A stretch of 64,000 bases of DNA from Bordetella petrii (GTDB lineage: Bacteria > Pseudomonadota > Gammaproteobacteria > Burkholderiales > Burkholderiaceae_B): NCBI RefSeq assembly GCF_017356245.1, contig NZ_JAFMZZ010000004.1, positions 1,071,151 through 1,135,150 on the forward strand, given 5' to 3'. The position numbers were made by a program, and so were the translations under genes. Within the stretch, counting starts at the first letter, position 1. Each line of letters starts with the position of its first letter. Below the pieces are notes generated by a model. That model made no database searches and was not told the origin of the DNA. It worked only from the letters and a program-made list of their open reading frames with translations. This document shows, piece after piece, positions 21,041-64,000 of this stretch.

Positions 21041-21808
21041 ATGAGTTCCGCCATCGACCTGAATTGCGACATGGGCGAAAGCTATGGCGCCTGGCACATG
21101 GGCAATGACGAAGCCGTGCTGCAGCTCGTCAGTTCGGCCAACATCGCCTGTGGCTTCCACGGCGGCGACCCCTCCACCATGCGCAAGACGGTGGCGGCGG
21201 CCGTCGCAAAGCAGGTCGCGGTGGGCGCCCACCCCGGCCTGCCCGACCTGGTCGGCTTCGGCCGGCGCATAATGCAGATCACGCCGCAAGAAGCCTACGA
21301 CATGGTGGTGGTGCAAGTGGGCGCGCTGGCGGCGGTGGCCGCCACGCAAGGCGCGCGCCTGCACCACGTGAAGGCCCACGGCGCCCTGTACAACATGGCC
21401 GCCAAAGACGCCGCGCTGGCGCAGGCCATCTGCCGCGCCGTGCGCGACGTCGATGCCGGCCTGGTGCTGTACGGCCTGGCGGGCAGCCAGCTGGTCAAAG
21501 CCGCGCAGGACCTCGGCCTGCGCGCCGCCCACGAAGTATTCGCCGACCGCTCTTACCAGGACGACGGCTCGCTGACCCCGCGCAGCCAGCCCGGCGCCAT
21601 GATCGAAGACGTCGAGACCTCGGTGGCGCAGGTGCTGCGCATGGTGCGCGAAGGCGTGGTGCGTTCGGTAAGCGGGCGCGACGTGCCGGTGCAGGCCGAC
21701 ACCTTGTGCGTGCACGGCGACCAGCCCAACGCCGTGGCATTCGCCCGCGCGCTGGGCGACGCGCTGCGCGCGGCGGGCATCGAAGTGCGGGCGGCGCCGC
21801 AGGATTGA
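21041..21808 (+). CDS. pxpA: 5-oxoprolinase subunit A (LamB/YcsF family)
   Basis: A 255-residue LamB/YcsF protein, the third 5-oxoprolinase subunit. The family signature IDLNCDMGESYGAW opens the protein; NIACGFHGGDPSTMRKTV, VGAHPGLPDLVGFGRR, VKAHGALYN and EVFADRSYQDDGSL follow. Start ATG 21041 is 10 nt after pxpC, with GAGGA just before it. The three genes form one operon for recycling pyroglutamate. A palindrome pair follows 35 nt after the stop. Confidence 0.95.
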   Translation: MSSAIDLNCDMGESYGAWHMGNDEAVLQLVSSANIACGFHGGDPSTMRKTVAAAVAKQVAVGAHPGLPDLVGFGRRIMQITPQEAYDMVVVQVGALAAVAATQGARLHHVKAHGALYNMAAKDAALAQAICRAVRDVDAGLVLYGLAGSQLVKAAQDLGLRAAHEVFADRSYQDDGSLTPRSQPGAMIEDVETSVAQVLRMVREGVVRSVSGRDVPVQADTLCVHGDQPNAVAFARALGDALRAAGIEVRAAPQD

Positions 21809-21843
21809 AGCGGCCGGCGGTATCCGGCAGGTGTGTGCCCGCA

Positions 21844-21932
21844 GGTGTCTGACTCCCGAAGGGTGTCAGACACCGCAAACCTGAGACGGCCCCGGCACAC
21901 AGCGGTATCAGGCACCTGCGGAGCCTGACACC
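21844..21932. repeat. Paired palindromic repeat (A then B)
   Basis: Hairpin A arms are 21844-21853 and 21865-21874; hairpin B arms are 21904-21913 (GGTATCAGGC, one base changed) and 21923-21932. It fills the gap between the convergent 3' ends of pxpA and the FAD/Fe-S dehydrogenase, ending 6 nt before the dehydrogenase stop codon. Confidence 0.9.
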
Positions 21933-21938
21933 AGGAAG

Positions 21939-26541: not shown

Positions 26542-26608
26542 GATGGGCGGCAGTTTAGCTGGTTCCGGGCGGGGGTCGGGTTGTGCGATGGGTCGTCTTT
26601 CTTCTGGC

Positions 26609-26717
26609 GTCGCGGCGTGGGGGCGCGAGCGCCTTGGCTTCACGGTGCCGTCCGGGCGCCCCGCGCGCCCGGGCCCGGCCCCGAGGCGCCGCGGCACTCG
26701 CGCCCCCACGCCACGAC
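26609..26717. repeat. Composite element, copy 1: outer inverted arms
   Basis: Arms of 25 nt at 26609-26633 and 26693-26717 are inverted copies with two mismatches. The loop contains GGCTTCACGG and GGCCCCGAGGCGCC, both also found in copy 2 at 63.5-63.6 kb. No gene is seen in the 717-nt interval between the DedA-like gene and ilvA; it is nearly all repeat DNA. Confidence 0.85.
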
Positions 26718-26811
26718 TCGCAGTAAAGGATGATCGGGGCGTCGCTGGGGCGATCTGGTTCTTGCATTTTTGGGCCGCCGGGCGGGGAAGGGAAAAAAAA
26801 CTTGTGGGGCC

Positions 26812-26846
26812 GGCATTCGCGGCCGCCCAGCGCGGCCGCGAATGCC
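26812..26846. repeat. Composite element copy 1, left hairpin
   Basis: Perfect 15-bp stem (26812-26826 with 26832-26846) and loop CCAGC. The inner five pairs GCCGC/GCGGC are shared with the other three hairpins of this family; the outer ten are not. Confidence 0.9.
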
Positions 26847-26890
26847 ATTCAGAGCGCGGAAGGCCAAGGCTGCTGTTCAGTGGCATATCT

Positions 26891-26982
26891 GGTGTCTGAC
26901 TCCCGCCAGGGTGTCAGACACCGCCTCGCGCCACGGCCGTCTCCGTCATACGGTGTCAGGCACCCTTCGGGAGCCTGACACC
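26891..26982. repeat. Paired palindromic repeat (A then B) inside composite element copy 1
   Basis: Hairpin A arms are 26891-26900 and 26913-26922; hairpin B arms are 26952-26961 and 26973-26982. It lies between the two hairpins of the composite element; the second composite copy has only about 31 nt there, suggesting insertion of the palindrome pair. Confidence 0.9.
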
Positions 26983-27012
26983 TTGTATTGGCACGCATGC
27001 TGCCATTTGAAT

Positions 27013-27047
27013 GGCGCGCGGCGCCGCGCAGGGCGGCGTCGCGCGCC
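27013..27047. repeat. Composite element copy 1, right hairpin
   Basis: A 15-bp stem (27013-27027 with 27033-27047) with one G-T opposition at the ninth pair and loop GCAGG. A run of six T at 27059-27064 follows 11 nt later, too far for a standard intrinsic terminator. Confidence 0.88.
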
Positions 27048-27258
27048 GGCCCCACAAGTTTTTTCCCCTTCCCCACCCGGCGGCCCAAAAATGCAAGAAC
27101 CCTGCCCTTCCCAGCGATATGGCGAACAGGATCCGCCGCGAGTCGCGGTGGGTAGGCGCAAGAACGACTGCTCGCACACAACGCAAGAAGCATAAAAGGC
27201 CCCGTGTGATATTCTGCCTGACGCCTTTTTCCCCTCTGTCACCGCTCTTTGCGTCGCC

Positions 27259-63464: not shown

Positions 63465-63495
63465 TTGTTGTGTAGTTGATGGTTCTTCTGGGCGT

Positions 63496-63647
63496 CGAGG
63501 CGGCGCCCTGGGGGTGGGCGGGCTTCACGGGACCGGTCTGGCGCCTTCGCGCCAGACAACGCGTTGTCAACCTCGTCGGCCTGCGGCCTCCTTCGGTTTC
63601 CCTCGCTCGGCCCCGAGGCGCCCGCCCACCCCCAGGGCGCCGCCTCG
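63496..63647. repeat. Composite element, copy 2: outer inverted arms
   Basis: Arms of 28 nt at 63496-63523 and 63620-63647 are perfect inverted copies. Inside lie further palindromes: a 9-bp stem 63536-63544/63549-63557 (loop CTTC) and the self-complementary GACAACGCGTTGTC at 63555-63568. The left edge TTCTTCTGGGCGTCGAGGCG matches copy 1 at 26602-26617. No gene is seen from 63465 to 64000. Confidence 0.85.
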
Positions 63648-63744
63648 GCTCGCGGTAGTCCATATTCGACGCACCACTGGGGCGGCTGGGGTTCTTGCCT
63701 TCGTGGGGGATTGCACCTTGAAAAGAGAAAAATCGTGCGGGGCC

Positions 63745-63779
63745 GGCCATCGGCGCCGCCCTGCGCGGCGCCGATGGCC
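63745..63779. repeat. Composite element copy 2, left hairpin
   Basis: Perfect 15-bp stem (63745-63759 with 63765-63779), loop CCTGC. Confidence 0.9.
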
Positions 63780-63810
63780 ATTCGTGCACTGCGCATTGCG
63801 CCGCCCGAAT

Positions 63811-63845
63811 GCGATATCGGGCCGCGCTGGGCGGCCTGATATCGC
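63811..63845. repeat. Composite element copy 2, right hairpin
   Basis: 15-bp stem (63811-63825 with 63831-63845), one G-T opposition at the ninth pair as in copy 1, loop GCTGG. Confidence 0.88.
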
Positions 63846-64000
63846 GGCCCCGCAAAATTTTTCCCTTCCCAGAAGCATGAGCCAAACAGGCAAGAACCCC
63901 ACCCGCCCCGGCGATGTCCGGGCTTGAGGCCAATGCGAGTCGGTTGGGCGTTGGCGGTGCGGGCGGGGCGCCTCGGGGCCGAGCGAGGGAAACCGAAGGA

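What the first reader, a model, noticed from the sequence alone, without database searches (positions are those of the whole stretch)
26812..27047. Hairpin stems differ between copies but pairing, size and loop class are kept
Four hairpins (26812, 27013, 63745, 63811) all have 15-bp stems and 5-nt loops. Read in element orientation the loops are CCAGC or CCTGC, one of each per element. Only the inner five pairs GCCGC/GCGGC are shared; the outer ten differ yet remain paired, and both right-hand hairpins have their single G-T at the same ninth pair. This compensatory pattern points to selection on structure (RNA fold, or a cruciform bound by a protein) or to stem renewal by a replication mechanism.
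Basis: seen in the sequence. Interest (0 to 1): 0.72.

Follow-up and report, generated by a model that had tools for sequence, protein, structure and literature searches.

The report
Covarying hairpins in Bordetella intergenic repeats
These hairpins belong to a repeated, non-coding DNA element of Bordetella and relatives whose stem sequences differ from copy to copy while the base pairing is kept; it often sits where two genes end head-on and may act as a folded two-way stop between them.

Summary
A pairing-blind 15-mer finds 42 sites in the genome (reversed control 1); 32 have 8-10 Watson-Crick pairs in the ten outer positions, 10 have 0-6. On a tree of 96 units from seven genomes, pairing partners change on the same branch 258 times against 92±7 expected. 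Orthologous copies show single base-pair compensations, one-sided changes and replaced hairpins. 'One loop of each kind per element' is at chance (11 of 30). The hairpins are the centre of a composite element: terminal repeat, giant hairpin, A-rich linker, 15-bp hairpin, middle arm, then the mirror image. Copy 1 spans about 26599-27165 and lacks the right giant hairpin; copy 2 starts near 63482 and runs off the window. R1 hits 9 of 9 genomes of the genus and 58 of 268 of the family. 48 of 67 classified rows are convergent (47 of 65 after my corrections); copy 1 itself is divergent. Best reading: a formerly mobile two-way transcription barrier kept by selection on structure; RNA versus DNA level and selection versus templated correction are not separated. 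Seven literature searches found no description.

The parts
26599..27165 (.). Copy 1, whole element as bounded by eye (TTCTTCTGGCGTCG ... AAGAAC); right giant hairpin lost
   Evidence: ends inferred by comparison with other copies
26609..26717 (.). Left giant hairpin of copy 1 (arms 26609-26650 and 26676-26717, 81% complementary; GGCTTCAC and GAGGCGCC inside)
26757..26811 (+). Left arm of the outer stem, ending in A-tract 26793-26800 and CTTGTGGGGCC 26801-26811
26812..26846 (+). Left 15-bp hairpin, loop CCAGC
26847..27012 (.). Middle arm, opening ATTC and closing GAAT
26891..26983 (.). About 93-bp repeat inside the middle arm, dispersed elsewhere in the genome; resembles BRE/Bor repeats in size and genus, sequence not compared with theirs
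27013..27047 (-). Right 15-bp hairpin, loop CCTGC in element orientation, G-T at pair 9
27048..27101 (-). Right arm of the outer stem: GGCCCCACAAG 27048-27058, T-tract 27059-27064, up to AAGAACC
63482..64000 (.). Copy 2, cut by the window and contig end
63485..63658 (.). Left giant hairpin of copy 2
63672..63744 (+). Left arm of the outer stem of copy 2
63745..63779 (+). Left 15-bp hairpin of copy 2, loop CCTGC
63811..63845 (-). Right 15-bp hairpin of copy 2, loop CCAGC in element orientation, G-T at pair 9
63846..63916 (-). Right arm of the outer stem of copy 2 with T-tract
63939..64000 (.). Start of the right giant hairpin of copy 2, continued in contig C1

Best explanation
The hairpins are the conserved core of a dispersed, non-coding, multi-hairpin element of the bacterial family that includes Bordetella. 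A complete element is two inverted half-units, each made of a giant hairpin, a conserved linker with an A-rich tract, and a 15-bp hairpin. Shown: the sequence of pairs 2-10 is nearly free while Watson-Crick pairing is kept by changes on both arms. Shown: copies lie more often than expected between convergent genes, can stay at one place across species, are also lost, and in one genome form subfamilies of near-identical copies. Inferred: the fold acts on transcripts that enter from either side as a two-way barrier (terminator or 3'-end protector), because the GC-rich closing stem with A-tract before and T-tract after reads alike in both directions; selection on both strands would disfavour G-U as well as A-C pairs. 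Inferred: copies spread as non-autonomous mobile elements by an unidentified enzyme and now and then exchange hairpins.
For: Covariation. Single base-pair compensations between orthologues. Second covarying stem (giant hairpin, outer arms chosen by best pairing and so biased upward): 84.8% Watson-Crick vs 58.7% with arms shuffled, 64 units. Convergent position: 48 of 67 classified rows, 14 of 22 in the window's genome alone, against 9 of 60 gene pairs in the window (Fisher P 3.9e-5) or 5 of 23 with gaps of 100 bp or more (P 0.0067). Closing stem and A/T tracts: 26793-26811 with 27048-27064. Orthologous and empty sites. Near-identical copies at different genes in G097.
Against: No transcript data. 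Copy 1 lies in a divergent gap. The A-run is 4 or longer in only 77 of 125 units. The terminator scan reports 2 sites against 0.9 expected and not the closing stem, whose loop exceeds its limit. One species has an 18-bp gap and no element at the copy-2 site, so the element is dispensable there. Bacterial stem-loops in general prefer convergent gaps (PMC1590033, passages), and the 93-bp repeat does so too (14 of 22), so position alone is weak evidence. Outside pair 9 there is no excess of G-T over A-C (8 vs 15).
Confidence: 0.45

Rival explanations
1. The hairpins are recognised as folded DNA by a protein (a transposase-like or other enzyme acting on single strands or cruciforms), and pairing is kept because copies need it to move or be processed.
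For: Terminal inverted repeats in G097 (59 sites vs 3 control), near-identical copies at different genes, conserved bases around freely varying stems, no preference for G-T over A-C, a position-specific weak pair 9.
Against: No Y1 transposase (PF01797) at E 0.001 in the window's genome; other enzymes were not searched. No target duplication seen by eye in eight G097 copies. Old copies that stay at one site across species keep pairing.
Confidence: 0.3
2. Stem renewal: folded strands are copied on themselves during replication (template switching), so that each change in one arm is written into the other without selection.
For: Near-perfect Watson-Crick pairing; two-sided changes about as frequent as one-sided ones in 14 close pairs (17 vs 15), with transversion-type pair swaps (11 of 17).
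Against: One-sided changes persist between species. The transversion-type swaps come mostly from three pairs that may be replaced hairpins or paralogues. Pair 9 stays unpaired in 16 of 96 units. The inner pairs and outermost pair do not drift, which points to constraint.
Confidence: 0.15
3. Stem differences only reflect shuffling of ready-made hairpins between copies by gene conversion.
For: Replaced left hairpin at copy 2, an apparent left/right exchange at C1_2367, and one stem shared by non-orthologous copies of two species but for one base; left and right hairpin arms of an element are more alike than shuffled ones (0.65 vs 0.55, 0 of 300 shuffles, not restricted to one genome).
Against: 89 distinct outer left arms among 96 units; isolated base-pair swaps between orthologues.
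Confidence: 0.05

Closest known systems
BRE, about 90-bp betaproteobacterial repeat, and the 26-30-bp Bor repeats of Bordetellae (PMC3110155 passages and section 14; PMC1590033 passages)
   Same: Dispersed intergenic repeats with stem-loops in Bordetella; a repeat of that size lies inside the middle arm of copy 1
   Different: Much smaller; neither text as seen describes a 0.5-0.9 kb element with giant hairpins or free, covarying stems; their sequences were not compared here
REP/REPIN elements, GTAG and CGTC families (PMC3733652 passages)
   Same: Inverted pairs of hairpins, intergenic, with complementary stem changes recorded within families
   Different: REP stems are 5-13 bp with a GTAG or CGTC end; here 15 bp, no such tag, plus outer and giant stems; no Y1 transposase in the genome
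Bidirectional intrinsic terminators between convergent genes (PMC1590033 passages; general knowledge)
   Same: GC-rich stem with A-tract before and T-tract after, between gene ends
   Different: The closing stem encloses two more hairpins and an insert; termination not shown
Non-autonomous mobile elements of the MITE kind (general knowledge)
   Same: Terminal inverted repeats, no gene, many copies, near-identical subfamilies in G097
   Different: No moving enzyme and no target duplication found; nested hairpins

Membership tests
REP/REPIN (RAYT-linked) | GTAG or CGTC tetranucleotide at the hairpin foot | tested here: not met
   Feet are GGGGCC and ATTCG in the alignment of 34 units; definition from passages of PMC3733652
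REP/REPIN (RAYT-linked) | Y1 transposase gene in the genome | tested here: not met
   PF01797 has 0 matches at E 0.001 in G000; 5 of 14 control genomes ring
BRE / Bor repeats | Sequence identity with the published repeats | not tested
   The texts seen give no sequence to compare
Bidirectional intrinsic terminator | GC-rich stem followed by T-tract on both strands | tested here: inconclusive
   Present in copy 1; A-run of 4 or more in 77 of 125 units; not reported by the scan
Bidirectional intrinsic terminator | Transcripts end there from both sides | not testable with these tools
   No RNA data
MITE-like mobile element | Terminal inverted repeats | tested here: met
   G097: CTATTGGWCGTCGA, 59 sites vs 3 control, at both ends of copies read
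MITE-like mobile element | Target-site duplication | tested here: inconclusive
   None seen by eye in eight G097 copies, one of them cut on the right by the end of its contig; exact ends not fixed
Known Rfam family | Score above the family's gathering score | tested here: not met
   0 matches in the window; best sub-threshold MIR1437, 50.5 of 168 bits, E 1.6e-7, which I put down to the long hairpin

The most novel reading that the evidence does not exclude
The element is mobile DNA whose hairpins are physically re-perfected whenever a strand folds and is copied, so that each copy carries its own drifting but nearly perfect stems, while unlike left and right stems make it fold as a branched structure and not as one long unstable palindrome.
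Probability: 0.12. Interest if true: 0.82.

Novelty: new variant of a known kind. Interest (0 to 1): 0.55.

Why it matters
Copies within one genome already give a strong covariation signal for a non-coding bacterial repeat, and orthologous copies across species let one watch stems change pair by pair. That makes a long-standing question testable: are bacterial palindromic repeats kept by selection on RNA, by recognition of folded DNA, or by template-switch correction, and can such repeats serve as portable two-way gene boundaries?

Tried and rejected
REP/RAYT origin: no PF01797 match in G000. Plasmid or phage origin: no match of window 26600-27170 at E 1e-5 in 72,556 plasmid and 50,697 phage records. 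Rfam: nothing above threshold. Loop-loop kissing was dropped: near-complementary loops follow from inverted modules, and the A/T combination is at chance. Strand test on G-T versus A-C pairs: not decisive, because in a convergent gap each unit is read in both orientations. Transition/transversion test for templated correction: small sample mixed with hairpin replacement and paralogues. Literature searches gave nothing on topic.

Rows set aside and biases. One search counted 214 unit hits in nine genomes and listed part of them; I worked with 130 of the 214 (none from G100, a part of G097). Two were scaffold duplicates of copy 2 and 3 had no fetched DNA, leaving 125 units; 29 of these from G097 were left out of the 96-unit counts because of near-identical copies, and G097 was left out of the element counts. 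A1 and R1 were built from units chosen for at least 13 of 15 pairs, so R1 hits lean towards pairing; searches are the pairing-blind check, and the 79 pattern-selected units still come from R1 hits. In one search arms were picked by best pairing. One search gave 89 rows: 67 classified, 20 not, 2 without DNA; the gene caller was trained on the window and classified 10 of 21 G097 rows. Three hand corrections: C1:85642 and C1:87110 are one element split by an IS110-type insertion (flanks codirectional); C1:3533218 is the same locus as copy 2 (convergent); G094 898163 and 899537 are one element counted twice. Corrected: 47 convergent, 13 codirectional, 5 divergent of 65. Orthologous loci in that count are not independent. 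The ortholog groups were picked by hand from the list, and the 18 pairs include paralogues; 14 of 18 were counted.

Full report
WHAT IS THERE. Window 26812 and 27013 (copy 1) and 63745 and 63811 (copy 2) are 15-bp hairpins with 5-nt loops. In each copy they face each other inside a larger inverted repeat; RNA folding gives an outer stem, left hairpin, middle arm and right hairpin, with z-scores of -18.6 and -8.8 against shuffles.

NOT CHANCE. The pairing-blind 15-mer GCCGCCCWGCGCGGC occurs 42 times in the genome and once in the reversed control. Reading the ten bases on either side without regard to pairing, 32 of 42 sites have 8-10 Watson-Crick pairs, 10 of 42 have 0-6, none has 7. Two of the 32 are a scaffold duplicate of copy 2.

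COVARIATION. Over 34 half-units of the genome, 97.5% of 510 cells pair, 11 of 15 pairs change on both sides, and the covariation score is 0.740 against 0.145 in shuffles and 0.08-0.12 in slid controls. These 34 were chosen for at least 13 of 15 pairs, so the percentage is biased upward. Over 96 units from seven genomes, a tree from flanking columns alone gives 258 same-branch changes of partners against 91.7±7.1 expected, and a branch overlap of 0.67 for partners against 0.15 for non-partners; in the 79 units that also fit a pattern blind to nine variable pairs, 674 of 711 cells are Watson-Crick against 38.6% with arms shuffled. Pair 9 is the exception: overlap 0.31, 16 of 96 not Watson-Crick, 10 of them A (left) against C.

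SINGLE STEPS AND EXCHANGES. Orthologous copies show isolated base-pair swaps (C4_471 right hairpin, pair 8, G-C to A-T; C1_809 right, pair 12, C-G to T-A; C1_3245 left, pair 4, C-G to T-A), one-sided changes (two in the right hairpin of copy 1 between G000 and G094), and replaced or apparently exchanged hairpins (left hairpin of copy 2; C1_2367). In 14 close pairs of units with related stems, some of them paralogues, there are 15 one-sided and 17 two-sided Watson-Crick changes in 210 pairs, while flanks differ at 165 of 1057 sites. Compensation and exchange both occur.

THE WHOLE ELEMENT. In G097 near-identical copies lie beside different genes (eight read). They show the plan: terminal repeat (CTATTGGWCGTCGA there, 59 sites vs 3 control; TTCTTCTGGCGTCG in copy 1), giant hairpin with GCTTCAC and GAGGCGCC inside, a linker with a TTCTTGC-like motif and an A-rich tract, the hairpin, a middle arm, and the mirror image. 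A giant hairpin was found beside 89 of 127 units; its outer stem also covaries, 84.8% Watson-Crick against 58.7% with arms shuffled in 64 units, arms being chosen by best pairing. Copy 1 lacks most of the right giant hairpin. Copy 2 runs off the window, which ends where contig C4 ends; 334 identical bases recur in C1 just after an N, and both pieces align to one locus of G094, so the 100% duplicate is most likely an assembly overlap.

DISTRIBUTION. R1 hits 9 of 9 genomes of the genus and, at E 1e-4 with rough E-values, 58 of 268 of the family in 6 of 43 genera, among them 41 of 43 genomes of genus g2 (unnamed). Named carriers of an exact pattern are Bordetella petrii BT 1 9.2, B. genomosp. 2 and 7, and Bordetella sp. 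BOR01. Of 25 units read from 20 loci outside the genus, nearly all show a hairpin of this kind with other stems and in part other loops (the G200 unit is doubtful); in the five loci printed in full a giant hairpin is visible by eye. At the copy-1 site the element is present in 3 of 9 species, a remnant in 1, absent in 5. At the copy-2 site it is present in 5 of 9 and a remnant in 1; one species has an 18-bp gap, and two have another downstream neighbour and no element in the 1 kb printed.

CONTEXT AND FUNCTION. 48 of 67 classified rows lie between convergent genes (47 of 65 after hand corrections), against 9 of 60 gene pairs in the window, or 5 of 23 with gaps of 100 bp or more. For the window's genome alone, 14 of 22, the tests give P 3.9e-5 and 0.0067. 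Copy 1 is an exception, in a divergent gap between a VTT-domain gene and ilvA. Copy 2 follows a TetR-type gene and, through the C1 piece, faces a gene on the other strand that I take for rodA by eye, not tested. The closing stem with A-tract before and T-tract after reads alike from both sides in copy 1, but an A-run of 4 or more is found in 77 of 125 units only, and the terminator scan does not report the closing stem. I favour a two-way transcription barrier (0.45) over recognition of folded DNA (0.30) and templated correction (0.15). Stem-loops in general prefer convergent gaps (PMC1590033), so position is weak support.

PRINT. Seven searches of an open-licence library found no description; most subscription papers are not held. 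Seen: passages of PMC3110155 and its repeat section, and passages of PMC2267715, PMC3733652, PMC4666352 and PMC1590033. PMC2267715 counts many stem-loop families in three Bordetella genomes; its family tables were not seen, so overlap is possible.

Noticed in passing
63667-64000: 334 bases at the end of the window recur identically in contig C1 just after an N: most likely one locus split by the assembly.
   Followed up: yes
L051:430-1413 (G000 C1 86061-87044): An IS110-type transposase gene lies inside the middle arm of one copy, next to the 93-bp repeat.
   Followed up: partly
L155 (G094 C1 897000-900900): One copy in G094 carries several tandem repeats of hairpin plus middle arm, with small stem differences.
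   Followed up: no
G097 loci L133-L152: G097 has 78 unit hits, several at contig ends, in subfamilies of near-identical copies: the best place to look for recent movement.
   Followed up: partly
21808-21938: The convergent gap between the LamB/YcsF and FAD-oxidase genes holds the 93-bp-type repeat here, while G097 has the large element in the corresponding gap.
   Followed up: partly
Pair 9 of the 15-bp hairpins: Pair 9 is not Watson-Crick in 16 of 96 units, mostly A (left) against C, five times the odds of other positions; no explanation found.
   Followed up: partly
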